From assembly GCA_020747065.1 (NCBI GenBank), contig JAGMVK010000016.1, forward strand, positions 806,001-870,000: a DNA stretch of 64,000 nucleotides. Direction: 5' to 3'. Source of the stretch: Cadophora sp. MPI-SDFR-AT-0126. Taxonomy: Eukaryota; Ascomycota; Leotiomycetes; Helotiales; Ploettnerulaceae. The notes under the pieces are model-generated. The model made no database searches. It worked only from the letters and a program-made list of their open reading frames with translations, and was not told where the DNA came from. The translations under genes were made by a program, and so were the position numbers. Position 1 is the stretch's first letter. Each line of letters starts with the position of its first letter. Positions 775 through 39,942 of this stretch are shown in pieces.

Positions 775-1273
775 ATGAAGTTCAATTACCAGATCCTTCT
801 TAACCTTCTCGTCACCTTCCTCGCCTTTTCCTCAGCACACTGTGCTCCTACACTCCATGACAGAAGCCATAATCCTGCCCTCATTCACTCTATCCCTTCC
901 CAGAGGTTCTTTAGATCACCTTGCGCTTCGAGAGACTGGGCCTCCAAATGCTGTGAAAGCCGAAGGCATCGAACCTTCTCCTACTCTACAAGAGGTCAGT
1001 GCGGTAGATGGAACATTGGAAGGGCGACATCGAAGGGAGTGGAAGAGGGAATGGAACGGAATAACTTCACAGAACTTTAAAAGTGGCCTGCTTTTTACCG
1101 TCATCATGGTCTTCTCGTCACTGTTCATCGTCGAAAACGGACTTTTCATCGTCTACTACACTTACAAAAAGGTCCGCCCTCTTTACAAGAGGCACTTTCC
1201 TAATAAGGAGAAGATGAGCAGCGGTGGAGGTTCTGGATACTATCAAAGACGTGACTCGGAAGATTCGAGATGA
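775..1273 (+). CDS. small signal-peptide + TM protein; needs a frame change between about 842 and 1000
   Basis: The ATG at 775 opens a clear signal peptide (MKFNYQILLN..., cleavage near SSAHC-AP). The C-terminal half, with a TM span (FTVIMVFSSLFIVENGLFIV) and a Lys/Arg-rich tail ending at 1273, lies in the next frame. A candidate intron at 842-905 (weak donor TGTGCTC, acceptor CCCAGAG) would join signal peptide and TM region in frame; a second acceptor at 913-914 also fits. Without splicing the gene would be frameshifted. The predicted type, signal peptide then short linker then one TM, recurs several times in this window. No known domain is seen. Confidence 0.4.
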
Positions 1274-1875: not shown

Positions 1876-3600
1876 CTAAAGTACAATCTCGCATTTATGT
1901 CCCTTCGGCGCAACAAGGAAGTAGTTCTCAAGCTCCATGTCCTCATCGCGAGTTCTCACAGTAGCGGTTGAGCATTCCTTGAAGAACTTCGCAGCCGCAA
2001 GACTCAACTCGGACTGGGCAAGATGGAGCCCAATGCAAACTGAGGATGTCAGCCATGGTCATGGACACAGATGAGCTTACATACTTCGAGAGCCTCCTCC
2101 AAATGGCATCCACGCATCTTTCATTTCTTGGGTAGGCTCTAGCCATCTTTCAGGCTTGAATTGAAGAGGACTGGGGAATATTCTTGGATTTCGATGAAGA
2201 GTGTATGCTTGGGTGCTGACAGTGGTTCCTTCCGGAATGAAGTAAGTTCCAAGTGTGCGTCCTCCACTTGGCACCTATGAGCAGTACTTAGCAAGCGCCA
2301 AATTCGAACCTTCGAGACAACGTCTGACAAAAATGTATCGAATGATCTAAACACAAACCGAGGGAAGGATTGTAGACACTTACAGTGCGAGGCAAGCTGC
2401 CAGGAGCAGCTCCATACAAGCGCAAAGTTTCCTTGATAACTGCTCCCAAGTAGGGCAGAGCATTCGTGTCTTTGCTACTTGGGTTATTGGCAAGTCCACT
2501 GACTTCTCCCACCAGCTTTTGTTTGACCTCTGGATGCTTCAGAACAGCCCACACCAGATATGTAAGCGTCACAGCCGTAGTATCACTTCCAGCAACGATA
2601 AAATTACTTGCCTCTCTCTGAATCTCAGCGTCAGAGAGAAATCCAGCCTTCTCGTCAGATTCTCTGAGCATCTTGGTAAATAACGTATCTTTGACCTCTC
2701 CGCGATCTGCGAGAGCTTTGTTCTTTGCAATGGCTGCTATACCGTACGTCGAGATCCTTTTTGTGGATTGGAGCCAGAACTGAATTGCTGGTATAGGAAG
2801 GTGGGAGAGAATTGTGGCAACGAAACCTAATTCTGATCGGAGACCGGAGAACATCATTACCTTCTCCAGATCTTCGGAAAAACTTGACTTCTATATTGTC
2901 GTCAGTACGCTTGAAATTTTTAGGTCTCATGTACCAGAATAATCCAGGACAATGATTACCTTTCCATGCTCCAAACTGTGGAGGCTCTCGCCAAATCCTA
3001 ACTCGGCAATGACGTCCGTAGCCATGAATGTAAACCATGAGAATATATCGGCGCCACCTCTGCTCATCGCTTGCTCTTTTATTCTCTGTATCACAAGCGT
3101 CGTTCTGTATTGAAGGATTTCGTCCCATTGAAGCAATGCCGTTTGCGAAAACGCTGCCGAGAAAAGACGTCTTCTGGCTGCGTGCTGCTTGGCGTTGATT
3201 ATTGCAAAGATTCCAGGCGACTCTACATTCTCCTCAGTGAATTTGGCGTACCATTCAGACTTGAGATAGCCTGAACCAATGCGATGGACTTCTCGAGTGG
3301 AAGCCAGATCAGAGATGGCGATTTCGGAAGGACTTATGCGAACTATTGGGCCATACTTGGAGTGTAATTCATCGATGTAATGAACTCTTCGCCCACGCAT
3401 AACTTGGAGTTTTAATGCTACATTCGTATAGCGGTTGAGTCGAGGGCCAGGAATTTTGCGAAGTGGCTCAGTGAGGGTGTGATGAATAACCTAGCAAAAA
3501 TCAGTCTGAAATTCTTCCAATTGTGAGTCAATTGTACCTTGATCAGCCCCAGGCACATGAAAATCGGCACAAGGACCGTGAGAAGGGTGAAGGATAGCAT
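1876..3600 (-). CDS. cytochrome P450 monooxygenase
   Basis: Five exons (3600-3538, 3490-2960, 2890-2384, 2274-2085, 2039-1876) give 484 aa. Residues 1-21 form an N-terminal membrane anchor, followed by the Pro-rich hinge (IPGPRLNRY). The I-helix motif AGSDTT lies near 298-303, the K-helix ETLR near 352-355, PERW near 408-411 and the haem-binding loop FGGGSRICIG near 425-434 with its Cys ligand at about 432. All key P450 signatures are intact, so it should be an active microsomal enzyme. The substrate cannot be told from sequence; it resembles fungal P450s of secondary metabolism and detoxification. It stands about 2.8 kb from the MFS gene with small secreted-protein genes between. Confidence 0.95.
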
Positions 3601-4210
3601 ACTGATGAGTAAATTTGACTGCTAGGGAGTCGATGTTGATATTATGGACGTGATCTGGAGAATCATTCCATCCAATTTGAAGAAGGGTGTCTGTTGATGT
3701 TTCTTCTGAAGAATCCGGGGGTCGGGTAGAATGCGGGGGCGGGGGATCCGAAGTGGAGGTGGAGACCAAGTGGAGGTGGAGACAGTGGAGCGGAACACCG
3801 GCACTTCTAGTTTTTGGGACATAGGATCAATTCTATCCTCAATACTGGTGACATTTCACAGCCTCCATTTGATTATGAACGTTTGGAATTTATTTTCAAA
3901 CATTTCTTAAGTGAATATTCTCATAAGTGAACAAGGCCAGGCTGTGAAACAGGAATAGATTTTGTTGTTGACATTATTCATATCCACACGAGTCAAGGGA
4001 GATCATAACCTGATGATAGGAGTCAAGATGGTAGGCTTGGTATCCGTAATTCACATCACCGCTCGATATTCTATATAAATTCCGCTGCACTGAATTGTAC
4101 TTAAGACATTGTGACATTACTTATTTCATTAGAGTGTCAAGAGATTTCTCAAAATCCAACAGCCTGAAAACATCACCTTCCTCTAGCGATTCGTTAATGA
4201 ACCATTCAAG
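3601..4210. other. divergent promoter region, P450 / small TM protein
   Basis: No gene seen. The stretch at 3700-3790 carries short imperfect repeats (GTGGAGGTGGAGAC twice). A TATA-like CTATATAAATTCC lies near 4070-4082, about 130 bp before the ATG at 4211. Confidence 0.45.
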
Positions 4211-4711
4211 ATGAAGTTCCTGTCTCTGGTCATCTGCTTCCATTCCTTCGGGCTACTAGTCGCTTCATCTCCAAGCAACGAGGACAAAGCTGGAACAGCT
4301 ACGAACTCTGCAAATCCGTTGACATTTCTGGACAGCACCATCGATACCAGAGCTCCCATTATCCCAAAGCCCTTCTTACCGTCACTCAATCATGAAGCTG
4401 CAATACACGTTACAGACCAAGTACACCTCGTCAACAGAGCAAAAGGCCAGAAAGGAGGCGACAAGTCAACTGGAGGCAAACAGTCAAAGGCCAACGAGAT
4501 GATTATGAACCAGAAGTTGCAGGCTGGCAACCGAGATGTCATACTTGGCTGTACCTTGGGTGTGTATGGGTTCTTGGGATTCCTTGCGCTGCTTGCTTGG
4601 TACTTTGATGTTCTGCCTGGATTTGGGAGGTTAGTGGAGTCTATTCTGGAAGGTCAGCATGACCAGAAATGGAGACTAGCTGCGGAATTTGGAGAGGTGA
4701 TTGGGAGATGA
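4211..4711 (+). CDS. small secreted/membrane-anchored protein (signal peptide + one TM)
   Basis: A single-exon frame of 166 aa. Residues 1-19 are a signal peptide (MKFLSLVICF...). A hydrophilic Asn/Thr/Lys-rich region follows to about 110, then one TM span near 114-133 (LGCTLGVYGFLGFLALLAWY) and a 30-residue tail. No Pfam-type domain is recognised. The start is supported by the signal peptide and a TATA-like box about 130 bp upstream. It belongs to the group of similarly built proteins in this window. Confidence 0.65.
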   Translation: MKFLSLVICFHSFGLLVASSPSNEDKAGTATNSANPLTFLDSTIDTRAPIIPKPFLPSLNHEAAIHVTDQVHLVNRAKGQKGGDKSTGGKQSKANEMIMNQKLQAGNRDVILGCTLGVYGFLGFLALLAWYFDVLPGFGRLVESILEGQHDQKWRLAAEFGEVIGR

Positions 4712-5139
4712 AGGACGTTGCCTTCTAAAGCTGCTGGAGCTGAAATAAACTAGTTTGGGAGCGAAGTCGTGGTGTAGTTTCGATTCTGCTGGAACTACTT
4801 GTCAAGACCGTCAATGCCATGTTTTAACTTGCTTAGACATTTCTTAAAATTTCTAAAATGCCGAGTACTTCGAGAACTAACGGTATACTTTCTTATAGTG
4901 ACAAGTGATAAATATTTAACACATCTCTCCATTCTCTTCTCAGTTGGTGATTCAAAATGATAAGAGTCAGCATGAGTACTCCCCAAGTGGACGATTCATA
5001 TGTCTCTATATGTGGCCTATATAAGCTTGAAGCTGCGAGTTCTCTTACCGTCTTCTCCTCTTCCTCACCCAAGTTACCATCTCATATCCGGAATAGAGAG
5101 CCTAGAGCTACGGCAGAGCCCCATAACCACAACACAAAC
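4712..5139. other. intergenic, promoter of the 80-aa TM protein
   Basis: No separate gene is supported. It contains the TATA box at 5018 and a CT-rich leader at 5040-5090. Confidence 0.45.
5018..5024 (+). promoter_or_regulatory. TATA box of the gene at 5140
   Basis: TATATAA lies about 115 bp before the ATG and is followed by a CT-rich leader. Confidence 0.5.
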
Positions 5140-5382
5140 ATGAAACTCCCGATTCTCCTCATCCTATCCATCCTTATCGTCAGGGTTGTGTGTCTGACTC
5201 TCAGAACAACGACACCTTTGCCCACCAGCACACTACCAAGAACATACGAATACCCCCAAGGACGAGGCGGCGAGGCGCGCAGCAGCTTGAAGCATCAAAA
5301 GAGGCAGTACGGACCCAAGCGCGGCTTGGGCACTTGTGCCATATTGGGAATAATCATTGTGTGCTTGTCATTTTACTGTTAA
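5140..5382 (+). CDS. 80-aa signal-peptide + TM protein
   Basis: The ATG at 5140 was chosen over the upstream in-frame ATG at 4957 because it starts directly at a signal peptide (MKLPILLILSILIVRVVC) and the TATA box lies between the two. Residues 19-60 are Thr/Pro-rich then basic, with two Lys-Arg pairs (HQKRQ, GPKRG). Residues 62-79 form a hydrophobic span (TCAILGIIIVCLSFYC) that ends the protein. Cleavage at Lys-Arg by a Kex2-type protease is possible but is inference. No homologous family is recognised. Confidence 0.5.
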   Translation: MKLPILLILSILIVRVVCLTLRTTTPLPTSTLPRTYEYPQGRGGEARSSLKHQKRQYGPKRGLGTCAILGIIIVCLSFYC

Positions 5383-8358: not shown

Positions 8359-9386
8359 TGTGATGTATGTTGATCAGAGAGTTTCTGAACGGTTGGGTAT
8401 ATTTTTAAGGCGTCTTGAGGAGAAAAGGGAGTGAGGCTGCAGTAGTTCAACAGGGCGAGAATCCGGGGTACGTCGAGGTAGATATAGATCTTTCGCCTCA
8501 GGAGACCAATCTCTGGATCTCAGCAGACCTTCCTAGCAGAATATGAATCCGAGTCACGGGCAATTAGAAAAGGCTGAGACGCGACGGCGTAGCCAGCGGG
8601 AGGAGGTTGACGAAGAGAGAAGAAAATCGAATCGGATGTCTGAACGGACGCCAACTCAGGACGCCCAAGCTACTAAAATGCCCCATGGGGGTCGCGCCCG
8701 TCTCCACTCTCGAGCTGGTCGGGGAGGAGATACAAGTGGACTTGGCAGACAGGAACATTTTGGTGTGCTGTTGGTTGGATGGGGGTTGGCCGAGCTGTGG
8801 GGAAATACTTTGATAGTCTGGGGGTTCGGGACAGGGAACCCAGGCAATCCGGGCAGATGATTTTGCGGAGTCGAATCGCTTGATTTGCCTGAGTTCACAA
8901 GGGTGGGAATTGGAATGGCGGGTGAGAAGTTTAATCTTACAATACCAACGATTGTGGTGGGTACAGCTTCGGGGAGGAAATACCAAGCTCGCGGCAATGG
9001 CGTACATATTGGAACTTGTTCGAACTTGTGGCTTTGCTGGTTTCAAGGAGAGCTTGAGAACGATTCGGTAGCCGGGTATTGAGAGCTCCTGGAAACGTGG
9101 CAGGAAATCCCCCTTCAACGGAGAGATTAGGGAAGGCGGTTTTGAGGATGGGGGGTTTTCCGGATGGCACCTGCCATCTCGTGAGGCAGAACATTCACGT
9201 CGCAATTTGGTGGATCTCGTTTTCAGATCAGGGGTGTTGGGTAAGCAGTATTCCTCGGAAGGTTCCATATCATCAGGTCAAGAGGTCTCCGTCTATCTAC
9301 TTTGAGTCACTTGTTAGAGCTGGTGCAGGTTCAAGAGAATTTAATCAGCGGGATTCAACGAGATGTGATTCCAAGTCCCTATCAAG
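8359..9386. other. intergenic between MFS and SDR genes
   Basis: Both strands carry overlapping medium-length frames (for example 8564-9268 minus) that lack motifs and mutually overlap. No gene is supported. Confidence 0.45.
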
Positions 9387-10465
9387 CTATGCATATCCCA
9401 ACGCCCAAAAAGTATCAAAATTCTTCCTCGTAATATCATCAACCAACTCAGGCGGCTCTCTGATCGTAAATTTGTCACCACTAATCTCCGCTGTGACGCC
9501 CGATAGCGAGGTGTTCGTGGTGAACTCCTGAATTGCGCTGATGAGTGTTGACATGGGTGTGATGATCATCGAGGACATAAGATTGTCGTCCGCGAGGCCG
9601 GTTGCTGTTCGCATTCATTAGTTTCGTTCTTCTGTATCTGAGAGCGCTGAGAAAGAGAGAACATACCAATGCAGTTCGGACAAATCCCGTTGATCCTGAT
9701 CCCATCCTCCTCCAAAGGCTTCGCAAGGGACCGCACAGCACCTACAACAGCATGTTTCGTGATGCCGTACATGGGCGCAATAGGGAAGGGATACAGTCCT
9801 GCGTTGGAAGCTGTGCATATGATTTGTCCCTTTTGTGAAGAAGTGTTCTTCCGCATGTAGTAGACTGCGAGTTTGATGGCTGTGTGAAAGACTCGTCAGC
9901 ACTGTCTAGTTTCCCAAAACCTCCCATTATCACAATAATTATTTAAATATGAGATTGGAAAGGGTGAATAAAAATGAAAGAACTCACAATACAACGTCCC
10001 CAGCAAATTAATATTCAACGTCTTCAACCCCGGCTTTCTCGGCCCCTCCCCTTCTTCTTCCCTCTCAAGAAACTTCCCAATCTCACTCACACCCGCATTA
10101 GCACATACGACATCTACACTCCCAAAATGCTTATACACAGTCTCGAAAACAGATACCTGCTCCTCCCAATTGGAGATGTCGCATTTCTGAAACGAGAATG
10201 TTGAGGCTGGGAATTCGGTTTGCAAGGAGGACAGGAGGGTTGGTGGAGGGGTCGAGATGTCGAGGACGGCGATGTTGGTGGCATGAGATGCGAAGAATTT
10301 GACGAGTGCGAGGCCGATGCCTGATGCGCCGCCTGGGGAAAAACGTCAGTATTGCGCATTTAGGAGATTTGGAGGTTTGGGGGACTTTTGGGGTTGGAGG
10401 TCAAGGGGCCAGAGCTACGTACCAGTTACGACCACTGTCTTTCCAGTAAGTGATGAGTTCGCCAT
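9387..10465 (-). CDS. short-chain dehydrogenase/reductase (SDR)
   Basis: Four exons (10465-10423, 10332-9988, 9879-9667, 9604-9387) give 272 aa. The cofactor motif TGGASGIG is at 14-21, NAG at 93-95, the catalytic Ser near 154, and Tyr167-x3-Lys171 (YGITK). This is a classical NAD(P)-dependent SDR, similar to the 15-hydroxyprostaglandin-dehydrogenase-like fungal enzymes. It lies back to back with the second SDR at 11299 and shares that intergenic promoter, which suggests co-expression. The substrate is unknown. Confidence 0.93.
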
Positions 10466-19443: not shown

Positions 19444-19866
19444 TCACTTCCACTCCCTACTATCCTCCCCACAGTTCTTCCCCTCTCCCTCCTTAAACCC
19501 CCTCTCCTCTCTCTTCCTCCTACACCTCTTCACCCATAAATTAACCACCCAAATCCCAACCCCTACTACTACCATCGCCGCCACGCTCGTAAGAACCAGA
19601 AATCGCTTCTTCTTCGTGAAATCTCTCTCTTGGAAGTTCTGCTCGTGAGTGATGGAGGATTGCGCGGCGTCGAGAGCTTGTTGGGCCAGGGGGTCGTTTT
19701 TGTGGCGCGTAAGGAGGTGGAAAGGTGGAAAGAGTAGGTTTGAGGTTGTGGGGAGGTGGTTTGTGGGTGGGTTTGTGGTTGGCAGGGCACAGGGAAGGGG
19801 AAGGGAGAAGGATGCTGTGGTTAGGGTGAGGAGGATGATGATGAGGAGAGGGAGGGCGGGTTTCAT
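19444..19866 (-). CDS. small signal-peptide + TM protein
   Basis: A single-exon frame of 140 aa. Residues 1-21 form a signal peptide (MKPALPLLIIILLTLTTASF). A Pro/Thr-rich linker is followed by an amphipathic stretch (residues 60-85), a TM span near 92-112 (VLTSVAAMVVVGVGIWVVNL), a Cys and a Lys/Arg/Glu-rich tail. No domain is recognised. Its neighbour at 20319 has the same design and orientation, so the pair may be a diverged tandem duplicate. Confidence 0.6.
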   Translation of the reverse strand: MKPALPLLIIILLTLTTASFSLPLPCALPTTNPPTNHLPTTSNLLFPPFHLLTRHKNDPLAQQALDAAQSSITHEQNFQERDFTKKKRFLVLTSVAAMVVVGVGIWVVNLWVKRCRRKREERGFKEGEGKNCGEDSREWK

Positions 19867-20318
19867 GGTTCATCAGTAAGGGAAGTGACCAGAAGCGGTT
19901 CTTAGAAGGGAGAAAGGCGTTTTGACGCAATGTGGAATAGAGCAAATCTGTTGGTTCGTAGCGAAGTCCTGATTTTTATACTAGGAGCACGATGACTTCG
20001 CCCTGGGAGGTGTTTCCGTGATTCATATCTCTATTTTTGACTGGCCATGAAAAGAATGGAGTTGACTCATGACGCTAGGTATATTCCTCGACCGAATTTA
20101 TGATGTAAGATACCGGTAGTGCCCAAAATGACCGAAAACCTCTCGACCGCACCAACTTCTATGCCTTTCAAATTGTCGAAGCCAAAAATACCTTGCACCT
20201 AACCCTGTCCCACCCATCAGATATTTCCCCGCCACCTGCCCATAAATACCAACCCAATATCTCCCAAACCATGCCATGATCCTCAATAAATTCCTTTCCC
20301 TTCCGTTCCTGCCCTGCC
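19867..20318. other. intergenic between two small TM-protein genes
   Basis: No gene. A TATA-like GATTTTTATACT (read on + at about 19970) may serve the gene at 19866. Confidence 0.4.
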
Positions 20319-20702
20319 TTACCTCCTCATCCCCCAATAACACCCCGCCACCGACGCAACAACCATAACCGCAAACCCAACTGCAATCATAATAGCCGTT
20401 AACCCTAATTTCCCATGAGGAGTCCTCACTGCACTCTCACTATAATTCCCCGGTGAAATGTCGATGCGTTGGCAGCTGTTTGAATCTCGCTTGTGTGTTG
20501 GTAGTAATGTTGACACTGAGGAGGTGGGGCTTTCTCGCTTATTTTCCAGAAGAAGAGGAGCGAGAGAGAGGTTGGTGGAGGGTGGGGACGTAAGTGGAAG
20601 TGGAAGTGGAAGTGGAAGTGGAAGGGGGTGGGCGAGAGTGAGAGTGAGAGCGAAGATGGCGGTTATGTAGAGTGTGACGAAGAAGGAGGTTTTGTTGTTC
20701 AT
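20319..20702 (-). CDS. small signal-peptide + TM protein with a Pro-Leu repeat
   Basis: A single-exon frame of 127 aa. A signal peptide spans 1-24. It is followed by alternating Pro-Leu dipeptides (residues about 26-37) encoded by a GGAAGT-type hexanucleotide microsatellite. A Ser/Lys/Arg-rich linker contains a Lys-Arg site (HKRDS), and a TM span lies near 100-123 (TAIMIAVGFAVMVVASVAGC). The protein ends in two arginines. No domain is recognised. Same design as 19444 and 4211. Confidence 0.58.
   Translation of the reverse strand: MNNKTSFFVTLYITAIFALTLTLAHPLPLPLPLPLPLTSPPSTNLSLAPLLLENKRESPTSSVSTLLPTHKRDSNSCQRIDISPGNYSESAVRTPHGKLGLTAIMIAVGFAVMVVASVAGCYWGMRR
20592..20625. repeat. hexanucleotide microsatellite inside a coding frame
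   Basis: About five copies of GGAAGT on the + strand. It encodes the Pro-Leu run of the minus-strand protein at 20319-20702. Copy-number change would alter length by two residues without shifting frame. Confidence 0.75.
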
Positions 20703-21569
20703 CGTGTGGTTTGCTTTGTGACAGACAAGTTGTCTCCTAAGGGAGGGAGGTTTGTGAGATGGAATAGTTGAAGACTGGTCGAGAGACAGGGGGGTTTTGA
20801 AGCTTGTGACTTGATAGAGTCATCTGAATAACTTGAATGTGAATGTGTAACGTTGCAAGCTCATGTTGACCTCATGTTGGCTTCGGAAATAGGTTTTCAC
20901 TATTGTAGTTACTTGAAATGTGATCAGAGAAAACATTCTTGGTCGCGACACGAAGTTCAGACTTCGAGACTCCGTGTTCTTGCAACCAATGAAGGAAGGT
21001 TCAGAATACCAATTTTTTATATTCAGATATGGCGAGTCACATAGTTTATTCACAGGTTCTGGAAGATCATGTTTCTAAATTAACGTTTTTAAATTCACAG
21101 CGACAAGAAATCTGTGCAGTTCATACGACAAAATCATAAATAATAAGGGGCAAAGCCGACATGTAAGGAATGTGTGAAAATCCAGGGACTAACATGAATA
21201 AGTATACCGTGAGCCCAGAGATGCCAAGGAAATATTAACAACAATCTCGTAAACTTGCCAAGGCAAAATATGAGACTGCATAGAATCGTCTCGTGACATG
21301 GTTACCCAAAATATAGGCAACAGCAAGTTTCAAGGTGACCAAGCACCCAGGGATGACCAAACAGCTACTGAACGTCGTTCCTTTTGGATCTGCAAAAGCC
21401 CCATCGAACGGTACCTGGCTGATAAAAACCCGACACCTCCGTGTGGAGAGATTCTCTGCCGCTAGTGCCCTTATACTCGTCTCCACCACTTGTACCTCCC
21501 AATCTTCGGCCTTATATAGCGTCCACCGCTATAGACACACTTCAAATTTCCAGGCTAGCTCTATCCGCC
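20703..21569. other. intergenic, no gene supported
   Basis: AT-richer sequence between the TM-protein gene and the HET gene. A frame at 21235-21489 (minus) has one hydrophobic stretch but no credible start or domain. Confidence 0.4.
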
Positions 21570-25573: not shown

Positions 25574-26041
25574 TCATCCCCAACCCACCATTACCTCAAA
25601 TCTTCCCCAAAATCTCAACCGCATCCACCATATTCCACAAAAACAGCACACCCCAAAGCCCAAAGTCACCCCAAAAATCGTACCCAGTACCGGTCCCGCC
25701 CCATAACTATCCTTCCAAGTCTTCTTCTTCTTCTCCTCCTCCTCTGACTTCTCGGCGTCGCTTGCGACACTCTTGTCGATCAAGACTTGTTCCTCGTCGT
25801 TGTCGCGGGGACGGAAGAGGCTGGCGATGCTGTGGTAGATGATGAGGCCGACCCAGACGAGGAAGAGTGAGCCGAAGAGGAAGCCGATGCCGAGGGAGGC
25901 GATGCAGCCGAGTCGGAGGCTGGAGGGGTCCCGTACGGTGGTATCGGGGAGGGAGTTGGGGTCTGGGAGGATGCCGGGGATTGTGAGGGAGAGGGTGGTG
26001 GCTGCGAAGAGCGCCATGGTGCTGAAGATGGAGTTCTTCAT
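25574..26041 (-). CDS. small membrane protein, signal peptide/TM with acidic-basic linker
   Basis: A single-exon frame of 155 aa. The N-terminus (MKNSIFSTMALFAATTLSLT) is a signal peptide. TM spans lie near 45-72 (SLGIGFLFGSLFLVWVGLII) and 115-140 (GTIFGVTLGFGVCCFCGIWW), separated by an Asp/Glu/Lys-rich linker (EKSEEEEKKKK). It is a variant of the small TM-protein design in this window with two spans. No domain is recognised. Confidence 0.55.
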   Translation of the reverse strand: MKNSIFSTMALFAATTLSLTIPGILPDPNSLPDTTVRDPSSLRLGCIASLGIGFLFGSLFLVWVGLIIYHSIASLFRPRDNDEEQVLIDKSVASDAEKSEEEEKKKKTWKDSYGAGPVLGTIFGVTLGFGVCCFCGIWWMRLRFWGRFEVMVGWG

Positions 26042-27096
26042 TTTGGTGGTGTTTGTGCGGGTACTCGGGTGTCTTAGAAGAAGACACTACCGCAGTCGAA
26101 GTCCTGAGTCGAGATTTATTTATAATATTCTCGAGAAAAAGAAGAAAAAGAAGTCCTTTTTGTTCAAGAAATCCTCAAAGACCCTCTTCACTTGGAGCAA
26201 ACCGAGCTAGTCATGTCGTTGTTGAGCAAACAAACACAATCACGCATTGTACTACCACCCTGTTGTCATGGAAGCGCATGACTACAAACAATTCAATGCT
26301 GTGCTACAATGTTATTCAGCGCCATTCTCGAGTCAATGTTCAGAACAAAGAACAATGAGTGTCCAATGTCGCTGTTCACTTCATTCAATCGTGCACACGG
26401 GATTTGCACTTACACAGGTTTGAAATAAAGACAACTTGCTGAATAAGCTTGGAAGTCTGAAAGAAATGCGACAAGTTGACAGATCTCTCTATCTGTAGCA
26501 GATCGATATTTCGATTCGACGATATTCAACAGTATTGAATTAAAATGCTTCACAGCTCCAGACATGTTATACAACATATACCAAAAAGTTTCAAGTTTGA
26601 GTGCTCATTTGAGTAGTCTGCTGGAGCACTTTTGAAACAGCCAGGACTGTGAAGAGAAGAGTAGTAATTTTGAAGAGCAGGAGAATGATCTTGCCTTTGT
26701 TGAGCTGCATTCAGATTTAAACGATTCTCTCTTGTGGCCCCTTCTTGGGACAGTCACCTTGAACCTTGTCTACCCTGCAATCTTATAGTAATCTACTCAA
26801 CTCCTCTTGTAAGCAGTACTAGTAAGTAAGGTCTCTCCCCAGCATCTAGGCAAAGAATCCTTCGTCTTAGACACGGTTTTACGTGGTGCAGGAGGAGACC
26901 AAGCAGCCTCGCTAGAGTTCTTGGCAAACAGACAGGTCTCAAAGTTCTCGATAACGAACTGTAACTGACCGCAGCAAGTAAGAGACTCACGAAATACCGA
27001 AATAAGTAAGATTAAGCGTGAAAAAAAAAAAAGTTGGAGTCTAGGTCTTGTAGTCTATAGGTACTTTTCGCACTCTCTCCTGGCTCCAGGAAACAT
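26042..27096. other. intergenic, no gene seen
   Basis: AT-moderate sequence with an A12 run at about 27021-27032. No coding or RNA feature could be supported. Confidence 0.45.
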
Positions 27097-33464: not shown

Positions 33465-34389
33465 CAGATTCGTCGTGGATATGAAGCTGAAGTACGAGAT
33501 GAACTACTTTGCAGTGAAATGTGGGAACGTCGCTGAGATAGCTTCTGAATCGCTATTCGACTTGTGTCATTCAGTATTAATCAAGTTTGAATCAGAAAAG
33601 ACTCACCGCTCTTCTTGGCATGGATTTGTCACATAAACATCAACGTTGGTAGGGCATTGTTGGTCCCTATGCATGATGCAGGGAAGAAGCTGCAGCAGCA
33701 CTTTTCCCTCCGTAACCAATCCCAACCTAGACCCGCGATTTTATGTTCTAGAATAGAATGCCCAAGATTCATACTATCTCAATATGGGATAGATTTCTCT
33801 TTATTATTTGTAGAATTTTTGTGCATTTATAGTACTAGAAGATGGTGCACCAGCCCATTGATGATGTCGAAATTTTCGAATTAAGTACTTTTAAAGGCTT
33901 TCCCATTCAGGCGAATTTTGAATGAAGCGACTACCAGAGCGGCGCGACTGATGATCTTTGAATAGAACTCTGCAAAGTGATTGTAGCTGCAGGCTGCAAA
34001 ATCTCAGGCGCATACCTGTTGGTATTCAAAACGGGTATGTACCCTCATGACCAAGGTCCGGTCAGAACCCCTAAATGAAAGGGCAAAGTCGATGGTGTAG
34101 TCTCCCGGAGACTTGTGCAATATTGGTGACAGAATAATTACTCCAAATGCGGACCTTCTCATGGAGAGGTTTACTGTTGGGAAAGAGGCTCAATTACCCA
34201 ATAGGCGAGACCGAATTGTGGATCGCATCACATAACATCACTTGGAAGTTTAATATTCAGCGATCTGGTGCTCAATCTGCGATTCCAGCACTCTAACATG
34301 TACTCTCAAAGAATATGTGAGACAGGTCTGCCACAAAAGTACTCCTCGGGGTTTTGGCCATTACTTCGTTTCTGTTGTACTTTAGGAGT
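33465..34389. other. intergenic, holds one copy of a 38-bp dispersed repeat
   Basis: No gene. The 38-bp repeat at 34196-34233 lies just beyond the 3' end of the UstYa-like gene. Confidence 0.5.
34196..34233 (+). repeat. 38-bp direct repeat, copy 1
   Basis: Begins ACCCAATAGGCGAGACC and ends TCGCATCACAT. It matches 38750-38787 at 34 of 38 positions in the same orientation. The two copies bracket the UstYa-like gene and the repeat precursor gene. Confidence 0.7.
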
Positions 34390-35744
34390 TTAATCTAAGC
34401 TGCCTGGGCGATTCTGAACGTGCTTCAGTTCTTCAATATCCTCAAGCCCCTCAAACAGTTGGGGTCCCTGAATATCCAGACCATCGTACACGCTATAATT
34501 CTTCCTCGGAGGGACTATTTTGTTTTCCAATGAAGCTTCTGGAAAGAAAGGATTTATAAGCATCTTCTTCTCACCCAGGAGAGAGAAGCGTCGCTCATGA
34601 GCGACCGCTTGCAGTCTATCCCAGTTGACGCACACGTGTTCCTTATGGCCAATGTGACGAGGGAACGGTCTCTTGTTCCGTCCCTCACTCTCCGGCCACT
34701 AGAACTTTTGGGTAAGCGCACGCTTCTGAGACTCTCATACCAAAGTTCAAGGGTTACAGTCGCAAACACTTAATTGGCCGTGACACCCCGCAAACTGGAT
34801 TTGTTTACTTACGTAGAAATAATATAGGGACATATCGCCCTGACACATCAGGGCTTGGCGGATGCTGTGACGGGGTATGATTAGTCCCCTCATTCCTGAC
34901 ATGCACAAGAGGTGACATACATATCAAAACAGTGATCCACGTGTACATTGATTTGATTCGACCCCGGTGGTTTGGCGTCCATGTCATCGATATAGACATT
35001 CGGAAACATGGCTCGACGAAGGGCGTACCATATAGATTAGACATCTAGGCCACGACAGGACAACATGTTAAGCAAAACCCGTTAGAGACTGACCAGGCAA
35101 TGAAGATTATGAAAGACGACTGGCAAGGCATATACATCACCGGAGCCGTCTGCAACCTCAACAGAATCAAATCCGGCTGCTTTAGCCTCGTCAGGGTGAA
35201 CCCGCATATGCATATCTGATGACCATTAGCCACTGTTGACTCTCAAACTTGGCTCTTATGAAGAGGAATAATGCACTCTCGATCAATGCATTCCATGCAT
35301 CGTCCAGCTCCTTCCTGGGAATGCCTTTGTACTTCAGATTTTCTGGTTCAGTGGTATAGAACTCGTCGTCCAGGATCTTGAGCTGATATTCAATAGCACT
35401 GCTTGTGATATCTGCCCATGAAGAGGTTAGTCGAATAAAGAAGACTCGAGTAGTGATTAGAAGAAAATGCAGAGTATACCATGCGTTGGTAATTTGGGCA
35501 GCACTTTGGCTCCCCCATTTTGTTCTATCTTGTACAACAAAGCAAGCAGAACCCAGGGCAGCAAAATTGAGAATGTAATCAGACATTTGTACATTGTGTT
35601 GAACGTCTTAGGAAGCTTGTGACGCAAATTCGTGTAGAGGTACTCATTCTGGTCTTTCTCCAAATCACCACCACCAAGGAATGTAGAAAAGCTTGAACGA
35701 TCTTCATCCTCCAAAGGAGAAAAAGAAGAGTCCAGATTGGCCAT
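34390..35744 (-). CDS. UstYa-family (DUF3328) oxidase-like protein, possibly damaged
   Basis: Best in-frame model: 35744-35480, 35411-35277, 35215-35090, 35011-34921, 34864-34813, 34698-34390, giving 325 aa. Signatures in order: N-terminal TM (ITFSILLPWVLLALLY), DDAWNALIE, first HxxHC motif (HNLHC), second HxxHC motif (HVDHC) with FDIIRQALMCQGD, then HVCVNWDRLQAVAHERR. UstYa-type proteins oxidise and cyclise ribosomal peptides such as ustiloxin and asperipin. Problem: the conserved LRRAMFP segment expected between the two HxxHC motifs is present, but a TAA lies in its frame at about 35034-35036 with no acceptor after it. The model above splices past most of it with a weak donor. Either unusual splicing or a 1-base deletion is present. 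The secreted repeat precursor lies 2 kb away, divergently. Confidence 0.8.
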
Positions 35745-35830
35745 ATTCCATGAAAAGTAGATGCAATTTGAAAAAGAGCGCAAAATCTGTGTATCGGTTT
35801 TTATTCCTCAAAAAGCCGTTGTTTGACCAG

Positions 35831-35838
35831 TATATATA
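35831..35838 (-). promoter_or_regulatory. TATA box of the UstYa-like gene
   Basis: TATATATA read on the minus strand about 87 bp before the chosen ATG at 35744. Supports that start. Confidence 0.5.
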
Positions 35839-36063
35839 AAGACCCCAAAGTTGTGTTACGGACTTGACAGGCTCGGCTAGTGTATAAGCCGATTTGTTCG
35901 CATGCTTCGTTCTGTTTGTAATCACCGCACTACTAGTTTTCATGTCTTCGGAGACTAGCAAGAGTGCGTTGCATTGTTCCCTTGTAGGATCTAGTGGATT
36001 TTCTTGCGTGGTTGGCTCTACTCATGTCTTTGCATATCGCCCAGCAATAAAATAGCATGAATG

Positions 36064-36276
36064 TCTTATCAAGCTTTTGACTACTGTGAACTTTCAAAGA
36101 CACGTCAATTCCTTAACGCCATAGAGAATAAAACTTCTTATCAAGCTTTCGACTAGTGTGAACTCAAAATGACAGGTTGGTTCCTTAAAGTCACGTAGAA
36201 TAAAACTTCTTATCAAGCTTTCGACTACTGTAAACTCAAAATGACAGGTCGGTTTCTCAAAGTCATATAGATTAAA
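36064..36276. repeat. three-copy tandem repeat of about 73 bp
   Basis: Copies begin at about 36064, 36137 and 36209 with CTTATCAAGCTTT, followed by CGACTACTGT, AACTCAAAATGACAGG and GTTCCTTAAAGTCA. Copies 2 and 3 are closest; copy 1 is more diverged. The array lies about 320 bp upstream of the UstYa-like start. Confidence 0.85.
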
Positions 36277-36536
36277 CTATCATTTCACCTTCGATGATTG
36301 GCCGTTGAATCTCAAATGTTGCTTGGGGTAAATGTCAAGTCTCTTAGAATAATAGCATTTCGAATCTATTATATATAGAGAAATATACAATACAGAATCG
36401 GCAATCTTGTGAAAATTAGAGACTGATACAAGCAAAATAGCAACAAACAGTAGACAGTAGTATTCCTTTATCTGCTGACACATTTCTACCGCTAGCAGGA
36501 GAGGTCAAGCAAGAGGCTACTGATGGCGGTCAAATC

Positions 36537-36567
36537 TCCCCCCGCCCCCCGCCCCCCGACCCCCCCT
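36537..36567 (-). repeat. C-rich tract, G-quadruplex-prone on the minus strand
   Basis: Four runs of six or more C on the + strand separated by single G or GA. The complement has four G-runs with 1-2-base loops. It sits midway between the divergent UstYa-like and precursor genes. Confidence 0.8.
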
Positions 36568-37656
36568 CTCCACACACACAAACCCTATTGTGGTAGTCTG
36601 TACAAATTGTCAGGCTTAGATAATTATGGTTGGGGTGAGGGTCGAGGGGAAAGGCATGCCGGCGATTACCTGCTACTTTTGTCACTCTTTTGACCTTCGC
36701 TTGATAGACCACTTGAGGACCTTCCTACTTTGCTCCAGAACACGGTGGAAATGTCTCAGCAGAAAAAGAGGAAGGTGGTAGAAAAAGTCTATATTCCCAA
36801 AGAGGAAGGTTATCTTCGACGAAAGTATCTCTACCAGCGTGTAACGTTGCAGGCGTGTGACAAAGAAAGAGATGATGTAGCAGATACTTGGAAGTTAATA
36901 CTCTATCGACACTAAAGAGGAGCATTGTTGGCTAAGAGTGGTATATCAGTCCATAAGATTTACTTAGGATTGGAAAAATTCTGACCAGACCCTTCAAGCC
37001 ACTCAGACAGTTTATGTTTGACGATCATCCCGTGGGATAGCCATGAAGCGAATCAAAGTCAGATAAGCTTGCACATCTTCGCAAAGGGCCCTATACCTAG
37101 TATCATAAGAGCTTCCTATCCTACACGTAGGTACGTATTGTGGGGAACTTGAAACTAGAGTTTGCTACGAGCCGGCCCTTCCGGCACTCTAATGCGCATT
37201 ATCTTGGTGAATTTTCATTGTGGAGGTATGAGATCTACGGCACACCAGTCATGTTGAACCGAGCTTGACGTAAAACAAGTGTCGGGCAACTTTTGTCCTC
37301 GAATACAGACTCCAGAGAGGGAAACACATTGACCTCGGATTCTGAGATCAAACTTGTTCATCGGTTGAAATTTAAGCCAGCAGTTGTCACCTAATCTAAA
37401 CGGCTGAGAAGGATACAACGGGCAGATATGGGACTGCAGCTAATCCAGCGCCTTTCGAAGTTCCATCAATTGATATCCTTGTTAAATCCCTCACCACACA
37501 AAAGTATTAGATAAAGTTCAGACTAACAGAAGTCAAGGGAGCCAACACATGAAAAGTGGATGTAATAATGTGCTACTGCTCCGAAGGAACAGGATGAATT
37601 AGGCGTCAAATATTTGTTCCGAAGTATACACCCTGGCGGGTTTTTGTATCTAGAGG

Positions 37657-37664
37657 TATATAAA
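37657..37664 (+). promoter_or_regulatory. TATA box of the repeat precursor gene
   Basis: TATATAAA about 120 bp before the ATG at 37785. Confidence 0.6.
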
Positions 37665-37784
37665 CCCCCAATATGTCCTCGATACAGTGTCTTTCATCAA
37701 CTACCCTGGAATCAACAGCCTCACAATACACCTTTCAATTCGGTCTCAGTCAAATACTATCAGCCTGGATCTTCAACTCTCAAC

Positions 37785-38182
37785 ATGAAGTACGCTTTCG
37801 TCTTCACAGTGTGTCTCGCAGCTGTTACAGCTGCTCCTCTGAGTAATGTGCTAGAGTAAGTCAGTTTTGATTTTGCTATTTGCGGAATTTATAGGAGATG
37901 TATCATCATCTTGGCATTGGCTTCGATGTAACTCCACAAGCTTCTGTCTGACTACATCTTAGGGAAGCCGTCACGGTGAAGACTCGTGGTGAAGATGTCA
38001 GCTTGGCAGCACATGAGTGGAAGGAGAAGAAAACTCGCGGTGACGAGGCTATTGATGTCAGCGGTTACAATTGGAAGGAGAAGAAGACCCGCGGTGAAGA
38101 TGTCAGCTTGGCGGCACATGAATGGAAGGAGAAGAAAGCTCGTGGCGACGAGGCCATTGATGTGAGCGGTTATAACTGGTAA
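37785..38182 (+). CDS. secreted precursor with four internal peptide repeats; candidate ribosomal-peptide (dikaritin-type) precursor
   Basis: Two exons (37785-37855, 37963-38182) give 96 aa. Residues 1-17 are a signal peptide (MKYAFVFTVCLAAVTAA), then a 13-residue spacer and four units: A (31-47, TRGEDVSLAAHEW + KEKK), B (48-65, TRGDEAIDVSGYNW + KEKK), A (66-82), B (83-96, ending at Trp). The units alternate, so a 105-bp block was duplicated. Each ends in Trp followed by a Lys-rich spacer with a Lys-Lys pair, as expected for a Kex2-type processed repeat protein that releases several similar peptides. The UstYa-like gene next door is the usual partner of such precursors. It does not look like an alpha-pheromone precursor, which carries Cys- or Gly-Gln-containing units. 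The mature core (about 11-12 residues, or the AHEW/GYNW end) is inference. Confidence 0.8.
37982..38179 (+). repeat. A-B-A-B coding repeats
   Basis: Unit boundaries at 37982-38032 (A1), 38033-38086 (B1), 38087-38137 (A2) and 38138-38179 (B2). A1/A2 and B1/B2 differ mostly at third codon positions, so protein-level constraint is suggested. Confidence 0.9.
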
Positions 38183-38933
38183 AGGAGGCACAGATTCCCC
38201 TAAACAAAGTCCTACCCCCTGTACGAAGTCGAGGGTGTAGATAATTTAGGTGAACAATATATCTAGTTATATATCCGAATCATTCTTCAATTATTATATG
38301 CTAATAAGTGATTCCAGAAACAGATAGTAAAAACGTAATTCCTCAAGGTGTTAAAAGGTCATTAGAGTATCCATACCGTAGAATGCCTTACGGGTGCTAG
38401 ATATACCTCACAGTACACTCGTGAGGAGTACTTAGCTCATTATTACGGACGTCCCCGAAGTCAAGTGACCAGGGAGGTAGACCGGAGAGCAGCTAGGATC
38501 ATATATAACCACAATTTTTGAGCTTCCGGCGGCTGTACCGAATGGGCCACTATCACTACTGTACCACTGCAATTCCTAACATGGATCTTGATCTTCTTCA
38601 AGCCTATATCAACCTCCATATGCGGCTTGTGTTTTTTCATTCACAATTCTCCCTCACAGTCGAGATCTGAAGTCGAATACAACGCCTTCATACTTTCGAA
38701 TTTTGTATTGTATAGCGTAGTATACTTGTTTACTCCTGACAAAAAAGCCACCCAATAAGCGAGACCTAATTATGGGTCGCATCACATGATGTGGCTTAGA
38801 AATTTCGTGACTTTCGGCGACCGACACCTTCGGCGTATCTTTGCCCAGCACGCGAAGTCCTTAATTTCTTCCAATGCTAGCTCGCGATCGACATGCATTC
38901 ACTCCAAAGCAGTTGAGCAGTCCTGTATCGACA
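38183..38933. other. intergenic, precursor 3' side and PPTase promoter
   Basis: No gene. The second copy of the 38-bp repeat lies at 38750-38787, about 150 bp before the PPTase start. Confidence 0.5.
38750..38787 (+). repeat. 38-bp direct repeat, copy 2
   Basis: Matches 34196-34233 at 34 of 38 positions, same orientation. It contains CGAGACC and the palindromic core ATCACATGAT just at its end. Confidence 0.7.
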
Positions 38934-39942
38934 ATGGAGCCACAAAATAGTGGTAGACAAGATGGTCCTCGAATTGTCCAGTGGTTCATCGATACGCGTC
39001 CGCTTTGGCCCGTGAAAAAAGCAAACGCGCGAGATGAAGTTCAGGAATTGAAAACAGTAGTATGTATCCATTTCCAGACCAGAATGATAATTTGATTGAC
39101 CATTGTAGGCTTCAAAGGCCTTCTCTCTCCTCACCGAAGCAGAACAGACATCTGTCCTCAAATACTACCACCTCAAAGACGCCAAAATGAGCCTCGTATC
39201 CCATCTCCTCAAACATCTCATTATTGCCAAATGCGGTATCCCCTGGTCTCGTACCGCCATCTCTCGAGATGCGAAGGGAAAGCCATGCTTCAAGCCTCAA
39301 GCAGATGATAATCACGTGATGCTCGATTTCAATGTCAGCCATCAAGCGGGCATCGTGAGTCTCATCGCGGCGATTGGGCTGGAAAATGTGGCTGTGGGTA
39401 CGGATATCGTGTGTGTGAATGAGAGGCTGCAACAGGATTACGCACATATCAATAAATACGGCTTTGACGACTGGGTGGATGTTCATGCGGATGTTTTGGC
39501 AGACTCAGAAGTCGCATTTATGAAATCAGCACCTGTTGATGACCGAACACGAGGAGCTGAAAGTGTCATCGAGAGGCAATTGAGAAAGTTCTACGCTGTT
39601 TGGTGTCTGAGAGAAGCGTATGTGAAGATGACGGGTGATGCGCTGCTTGCGCCTTGGTTGAAAGAGCTTGAGATTTTGGATGTTCAGGTACCGAGTGCGA
39701 AGGAGGGTATCGATGCAGCTTCACTGGAGGAGGGTGAGGTTGTGAGGCAGTTTGCGAATTATTTTCAGGGGAAGGCGGTCACGGACGTGAAGACCGAACT
39801 CACAGCTTTTGGGACGCATTACATGATTGCAGGATCGATACGGCTACCAAAAGAACTTAAAGATTCGGGTGTGAAGTTGGGGAAGTGGAAACAGTTGAAT
39901 CTCGAGAGGGATATACTTGAGGTTGCTGAGGCAGCTTCATAA
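38934..39942 (+). CDS. 4'-phosphopantetheinyl transferase (Sfp/NpgA type)
   Basis: Two exons (38934-39059, 39109-39942) give 319 aa. Core motifs: FNVSHQAG near 116-123, VGTDIV near 138-143 (Mg-binding Asp) and WCLREAYVK near 207-215 (Glu and Lys of the WxxKEAxxK-type motif). The enzyme moves phosphopantetheine from CoA to Ser of acyl/peptidyl carrier proteins of fatty-acid, lysine, PKS and NRPS enzymes. Filamentous ascomycetes usually carry one broad-range copy (NpgA/PptA), so this may be the housekeeping gene rather than a cluster member. The internal ATG at 38874 was rejected in favour of 38934 because of a better protein start. Confidence 0.92.

What the first reader, a model, noticed from the sequence alone, without database searches (positions are those of the whole stretch)
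34390..38182. Candidate undescribed fungal RiPP locus: secreted repeat precursor beside a UstYa-type oxidase
The 96-aa product of 37785-38182 has a signal peptide and four internal repeats separated by dibasic spacers. Two kilobases away, divergent, is a protein with both HxxHC motifs of the UstYa (DUF3328) family. In known dikaritin pathways (ustiloxin, phomopsin, asperipin, epichloecyclin) this precursor/oxidase pairing makes cyclic peptides after Kex2-type cleavage. The repeat ends AHEW and GYNW differ from the published cores I know. I infer two related products, one of each repeat type.
Basis: partly seen in the sequence, partly recalled or inferred. Interest (0 to 1): 0.88.

Follow-up and report, generated by a model that had tools for sequence, protein, structure and literature searches.

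The report
Fungal repeat-peptide and oxidase gene pair
This fungal locus pairs a gene for a small, probably secreted protein made of four peptide repeats with a gene of the copper-oxidase family that cross-links such peptides; it is probably one more member of a known kind of peptide pathway, though the oxidase gene may be damaged.

Summary
The precursor (37785-38182, one intron, 96 aa) has a signal-like start and four alternating repeats; 10 of 11 codon differences between like repeats are silent, so selection kept the peptide. The divergent gene at 35744-34390 matches UstYa/DUF3328 and carries HNLHC and HVDHC. In this genome 6 of 24 examined UstYa loci, this one included, hold a repeat precursor; L026 shares layout, Trp-ended cores and the most similar motif-1 exon. 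The pair fits KEP/dikaritin-type RiPPs, a well-known kind (22% of 7,878 KEPs lie near DUF3328 genes, PMC7329392).

Corrections: all four cores are preceded by K-[T/A]-R, while dibasic KK is missing before the first; two of four cores have no Tyr; the exons bearing the two oxidase motifs have no good in-frame splice between them, so that gene may be decaying, misassembled or oddly spliced. New: a 56-nt direct repeat brackets the two genes, and its 29-base core occurs only there in the 54-Mb genome. Homologues outside this genome could not be searched.

The parts
37785..38182 (+). Repeat precursor gene: exon 1 37785-37855 (signal-like start), intron 37856-37962, exon 2 37963-38182; 96 aa
   Evidence: the split with the GTAAGT donor and TTAG acceptor, chosen by me among six open ones listed; 10 of 11 codon differences between like repeats silent
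37988..38179 (+). Four cores in A-B-A-B order (GEDVSLAAHEW, GDEAIDVSGYNW, each twice); each preceded by K-[T/A]-R; copies 1-3 followed by KEKK; copy 4 ends at W and the stop codon
   Evidence: units and codons; the repeat finder, D2 97 nt at 89%
34390..35744 (-). UstYa/DUF3328 gene: E1 35744-35480 (hydrophobic, helix-like stretch), E2 35411-35277, E3 35215-35094 (HNLHC), E4 open segment to 34921 (HVDHC), E5 34864-34813, E6 34698-34390
   Evidence: 39.6 bits, E 1.2e-8 for 34896-35225; three stretches hit UstYa below cut-off, the E6 stretch hits nothing; junctions: four of five can be joined in frame with ordinary sites, E3-E4 not; where several joins were listed I chose one
34929..35111 (-). 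The two HxxHC motifs (HNLHC 35111-35097; HVDHC 34943-34929), on separate exons with no good in-frame join
34196..34251 (+). Left copy of the bracketing direct repeat, 138 nt beyond the oxidase stop codon
38750..38805 (+). Right copy of the bracketing direct repeat, beyond the precursor and just upstream of the PPTase gene
   Evidence: 45 of 56 matches; 20 shuffles gave 29-32
36064..36276 (+). Three tandem copies of a 72-bp unit in the shared upstream region of the two divergent genes
   Evidence: the genome search with it found only itself

Best explanation
A minimal UstYa-linked RiPP pair. The precursor enters the secretory pathway (signal inferred from sequence) and is cut by a Kex2-like protease at the K-[T/A]-R / KK spacers. 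The KEKK tail is trimmed back to Trp, the residue at which the last copy ends naturally. This frees two alternating peptides, close to GEDVSLAAHEW and GDEAIDVSGYNW. A membrane-anchored UstYa-type oxidase encoded 2 kb away, or a paralogue if this copy is damaged, then oxidises or cross-links them. Shown: repeats, spacers, selection on the peptide, UstYa match, divergent layout, other precursor/UstYa loci in the same genome. Inferred: secretion, cleavage positions, oxidation, product.
For: UstYa match (exon stretches). Near-silent divergence of like repeats. Repeat precursors beside UstYa in 6 of 24 examined loci of this genome; in the rest of the 64-kb window the same detectors listed only the 72-bp tandem repeat (36097-36276, no dibasic site) and other frames of the precursor itself. 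L026 has the same layout (divergent, 1,304 bp between start codons), cores ending in W with the last copy ending W-stop, and the motif-1 exon scoring highest against this one (60). Published rate: 22% of 7,878 KEPs (30.1% in Ascomycota) have a DUF3328 gene among the 15 nearest genes, most often next door (PMC7329392, section 7).
Against: No good in-frame splice joins the two motif exons, and the E6 stretch has no Pfam match. Two of four cores lack Tyr. No tyrosinase hit in the window; no S41 peptidase found in the six-frame genome search. No MFS match near the pair: the nearest found is about 26 kb away, but only 24 window stretches were Pfam-scanned. The second-best motif-1 exon (L015, score 58) belongs to a locus with no precursor detected. 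No expression data; no homologue outside this genome could be searched; no random control stretches could be fetched.
Confidence: 0.6

Rival explanations
1. Decaying or orphaned locus: it was a precursor/oxidase pair, but the oxidase is now a pseudogene, so the precursor yields unmodified linear peptides, is served by another of the genome's UstYa proteins, or is itself no longer used.
For: Between E3 and E4 the only in-frame join found looks weak and removes a block that paralogues keep. The stretches alone are below Pfam's cut-off, and the E6 stretch has no match.
Against: All exon segments are open, and four of five junctions can be joined in frame with ordinary splice sites. HVDHC, a Cys in the C-terminal part and the hydrophobic stretch of exon 1 are kept. 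The precursor repeats show selection, although that records the time since the repeats duplicated, not today.
Confidence: 0.25
2. Ordinary KEP that gives linear signalling or effector-like peptides; the UstYa neighbour is coincidence.
For: 78% of KEPs have no DUF3328 gene nearby (PMC7329392). Half the cores lack Tyr. 18 of 24 UstYa loci examined here had no precursor detected. No separate WCxxxGQxC repeat pheromone gene was found in the genome (four single hits, against one for the reversed pattern), so a pheromone-like role is not excluded by finding the real one elsewhere.
Against: 26 UstYa places in 54 Mb make a neighbour within 2 kb unlikely by chance (my rough estimate 0.3% per precursor). 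Layout and core ends match L026. KEPs annotated as pheromones are, with three exceptions, not near DUF3328 genes (PMC7329392, abstract).
Confidence: 0.11
3. Small structural or wall protein with repeats, not a peptide precursor.
For: Secreted repeat proteins exist in fungal walls (general knowledge).
Against: Only 96 aa, no Cys-rich or Ser/Thr-rich body, no Pfam family over cut-off, basic spacers between repeats, and the last copy stops at the core end.
Confidence: 0.03

Closest known systems
Dikaritins (ustiloxin, phomopsin, asperipin-2a, epichloecyclin, victorin), precursor plus UstYa
   Same: Secreted repeat precursor with basic spacers and acidic residues (here GED/GDE) before the core, beside a UstYa/DUF3328 gene; asperipin-2a also uses a single UstYa homologue (PMC6514808, PMC10512285, passages)
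   Different: Cores end in Trp; half lack Tyr; the mark before every core is K-[T/A]-R; no tyrosinase hit in the window and no S41 peptidase found in the genome; oxidase reading frame doubtful; no product known
Kex2-processed repeat proteins (KEPs; PMC7329392, PMC6339444)
   Same: Signal-like N-terminus and at least three repeats of 8 or more aa separated by KK
   Different: Two alternating repeat types; repeat 1 has no dibasic site before it
Locus L026 of the same genome (C6, core AVEQEAYRLTISW)
   Same: Divergent precursor and UstYa; cores end in W; last copy ends W-stop; highest-scoring motif-1 exon
   Different: Each of its three cores has Tyr; KR after the core; core sequences look unrelated by eye
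Locus L024 of the same genome (C5, core with IEDYVGG)
   Same: Repeat precursor near UstYa
   Different: Tail-to-tail layout; Tyr in every core; tyrosinase gene beside it, so closer to the ustiloxin/phomopsin type

Membership tests
KEP (definition of PMC7329392, section 13) | ER signal peptide | tested here: inconclusive
   N-terminus MKYAFVFTVCLAAVTAAPL looks like one by eye; no predictor was run
KEP (definition of PMC7329392, section 13) | At least 3 repeats of 8 or more aa between KR/KK/RK/RR sites | tested here: met
   Four units of 14-18 aa, three KK between them; the paper's own scoring procedure was not run
Dikaritin / UstYa RiPP | UstYa/DUF3328 gene nearby with two HxxHC motifs | tested here: met
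   over cut-off; motifs at 35111-35097 and 34943-34929
Dikaritin / UstYa RiPP | Intact oxidase able to make one protein with both motifs | tested here: inconclusive
   no good in-frame join found between the motif exons
Dikaritin / UstYa RiPP | Tyr in the core (common, not universal: 65.6% of repeats of DUF3328-linked KEPs, PMC7329392 section 7) | tested here: not met
   present in 2 of 4 cores (GYNW), absent in 2 of 4 (AHEW)
Dikaritin, ustiloxin/phomopsin type | Tyrosinase gene in the cluster | tested here: not met
   no PF00264 hit in the window; loci L022 and L024 have one
Dikaritin, phomopsin type | S41 peptidase gene | tested here: not met
   no PF03572 hit in the six-frame genome search (the same search finds it in 10 of 14 control genomes)
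Dikaritin / UstYa RiPP | Cross-linked or oxidised peptide product | not testable with these tools
   needs mass spectrometry
Ascomycete alpha-pheromone precursor | Repeated WCxxxGQxC-type core (motif recalled) | tested here: not met
   absent from the repeats

The most novel reading that the evidence does not exclude
A two-gene RiPP cassette that moved or duplicated as a unit, bracketed by a direct repeat found nowhere else in the genome, whose UstYa enzyme modifies a pair of Trp-ended peptides, one of them (AHEW) through a Trp or His side chain because it has no Tyr.
Probability: 0.1. Interest if true: 0.6.

Novelty: new member of a known kind. Interest (0 to 1): 0.36.

Why it matters
1,758 of 7,878 surveyed KEP genes lie near UstYa genes (PMC7329392, section 7), but only five dikaritins had been reported by 2022 (PMC10512285, passage). 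This pair is small enough for a direct test of whether UstYa chemistry needs tyrosine, since one precursor carries a Tyr core and a Tyr-free core side by side. The bracketing repeat and the doubtful oxidase frame make it a possible case of gain and loss of such a pair. As a class it is ordinary.

Tried and rejected
Homologue search in the large protein collection: switched off, so conservation outside this genome is untested. Other copies of the precursor in the genome: none at E up to 1 (one search found only its own two exons). Pheromone gene elsewhere: four single WCxxxGQxC pattern hits on four contigs, none in tandem (reversed control one hit); two of them were read in frame and have stops close by. 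Other repeat rows of the detectors: L013 and L020 show repeats in several frames (minisatellites), and the window row 36097-36276 is the 72-bp tandem repeat; these were dropped from the precursor count. Solved structure of a UstYa relative, tried with a paralogue from L017: only an E 0.007 match to a venom allergen. Rfam (gathering scores) and tRNA scans of the window: nothing. A 19-nt near-repeat upstream of both genes (D5) is within chance by my estimate and was dropped. GC content is low at the locus, but 15 of 239 windows of the same size are lower, so it is no argument for foreign origin. Bracketing repeats in the other 24 fetched 7-10 kb stretches: none at 39 of 50 matches, 1.5-9 kb apart. 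Two UstYa places (C1:3078378, C38:2041718) were not examined.

Full report
What is there. The window is C8:806001-870000 of a 54-Mb, 38-contig genome, fungal by its gene content (inference; no name was available). The precursor gene on the + strand has exon 1 37785-37855, an intron 37856-37962 and exon 2 37963-38182, giving 96 aa. After a hydrophobic start ending in AAP and a short stretch it reads VKTR-GEDVSLAAHEW-KEKKTR-GDEAIDVSGYNW-KEKKTR-GEDVSLAAHEW-KEKKAR-GDEAIDVSGYNW-stop. Comparing like with like (copy 1 with 3, copy 2 with 4), 11 codons differ and 10 of the changes are silent. About 19% silent changes would be expected by chance (24% with a transition bias), P 4.9e-7 (5.9e-6). The one replacement, T to A, is in the spacer. 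The peptide letters were therefore under selection after the repeats arose. No Pfam family fits the repeat exon above its cut-off, and the genome search at E up to 1 found only the gene itself.

Processing, from the anatomy. KK separates the four units, so the protein fits the published definition of a Kex2-processed repeat protein (at least three repeats of 8 or more aa between KR/KK/RK/RR; PMC7329392, section 13), apart from the signal peptide, which I judged by eye. But no dibasic site precedes copy 1; what precedes all four cores is K-[T/A]-R. Copies 1-3 carry KEKK after the Trp, while copy 4 ends at the Trp and the stop codon. The natural reading is cleavage after K-x-R and trimming back to Trp (inference). 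The precursor at locus L018 of the same genome also has K-E-R, and no dibasic site, between its copies.

The oxidase. The - strand gene begins at 35744 and stops at 34390; 2,040 bp separate the two start codons, and the genes diverge. The six-frame search with PF11807 gives 39.6 bits, E 1.2e-8, over the cut-off, for 34896-35225. Of four stretches given to Pfam alone, three match UstYa below the cut-off and the C-terminal one (34393-34698) matches nothing. HNLHC and HVDHC are present, with a hydrophobic stretch in exon 1 and a Cys in the C-terminal part. DUF3328 proteins are reported as binuclear copper enzymes that use the HxxHC pair (PMC12435403, abstract). Four of five exon junctions can be joined in frame with ordinary GT-AG introns. 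Between the exons with the two motifs the only in-frame join found is a 78-nt one with weak-looking sites that removes a block which the paralogues keep (judged by eye). The gene may be decaying, misassembled or oddly spliced; I cannot tell which.

Is the pairing more than chance? The UstYa search lists 46 matches, exon by exon, which I group into 26 places. I fetched or held 24 of them, with about 3 to 5 kb on each side (and the window). Two detectors for repeat proteins and reading of the frames show a precursor-like repeat gene in 6 of 24: the window, L018 (ENLYFRGYKII), L022 (ALGNYYE type), L024 (IEDYVGG type), L026 (EAYRLTISW) and L027 (HHTEAQIAV, nine copies found, apparently one per exon). 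In the rest of the 64-kb window the same detectors listed only the 72-bp tandem repeat and other frames of the precursor. In five of the six loci the precursor and the nearest UstYa diverge; L024 is tail to tail. L026 resembles the window most: divergent, cores ending W, last copy ending W-stop, and the highest motif-1 exon score (60, against 58 for L015, which has no precursor detected, and 53 for L022). That ranking rests on about 40 residues and is weak by itself.

What is missing. No tyrosinase hit lies in the window, though L022 and L024 have one close by. No S41 peptidase is found in the genome. Genes with Pfam matches around the pair are a PPTase (39109-39939), an aquaporin, an NmrA-like gene, an aldo-keto reductase and a HET protein, with no obvious tailoring set; 24 window stretches were Pfam-scanned, not every reading frame. 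Two of four cores have no Tyr. In print 65.6% of repeats of DUF3328-linked KEPs have Tyr, so this is a minority feature but not unique (PMC7329392, section 7).

An unexpected feature. A 56-nt direct repeat (45 of 56 identical) lies at 34196-34251 and 38750-38805, just outside the two genes. Shuffled flanks gave at most 32 of 56 in 20 trials. A 29-base core of it, allowing 3 mismatches, occurs exactly twice in the genome, at these two places, with none in the reversed control; more diverged copies would be missed. None of the other 24 fetched stretches shows such a bracket. It may be the scar of an event that inserted or duplicated the pair as a unit, or a shared regulatory element; without a relative's empty site I cannot say.

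Literature. Five strings from the repeats were searched in open full text: 18 papers hold at least one, 15 were listed, and by title and abstract none of the 15 concerns fungal peptides (nutrition, polymers, stem cells, biomass enzymes and the like). Six strings of the other precursors gave no paper. Supplements could not be read, so the 7,878 published KEPs were not checked for this one. Papers seen: PMC7329392 (abstract, parts 1 and 2 of 4 of section 4, sections 7 and 13); PMC6339444 (abstract, section 16, passages); PMC6514808, PMC10512285 and PMC12048977 (passages); PMC12435403 (abstract and outline). All other papers were seen in search listings only.

Verdict. A probable UstYa-linked RiPP locus of the KEP/dikaritin kind, apparently new in its core sequences, with an uncertain oxidase and a private bracketing repeat. 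Interesting for testing tyrosine-free UstYa chemistry, otherwise ordinary.

Noticed in passing
window 34196-34251 and 38750-38805: 56-nt direct repeat bracketing the two genes; its 29-base core occurs exactly twice in the genome at up to 3 mismatches
   Followed up: partly
window 36064-36276: Three tandem 72-bp units between the divergent genes; the genome search found only this place
   Followed up: partly
L027 (G000:C12:2922301-2932300) 8434-9596: UstYa-linked precursor with nine HHTEAQIAV copies, apparently one repeat per exon with introns between
   Followed up: partly
L024 (G000:C5:1072501-1082500) 3492-4004: Ustiloxin-like precursor (IEDYVGG cores) with UstYa and tyrosinase nearby; an in-frame stop codon lies inside its first repeat
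   Followed up: partly
L011-L012 (G000:C20:132001-151000): Several UstYa matches within about 9 kb, with no repeat precursor detected
   Followed up: no
window 779-1270, 4187-4708, 4951-5379, 19447-19869, 20322-20819, 25577-26086: Several small reading frames with a signal-like start and a second hydrophobic stretch near the C-terminus (by eye), perhaps a family of small membrane proteins
   Followed up: no
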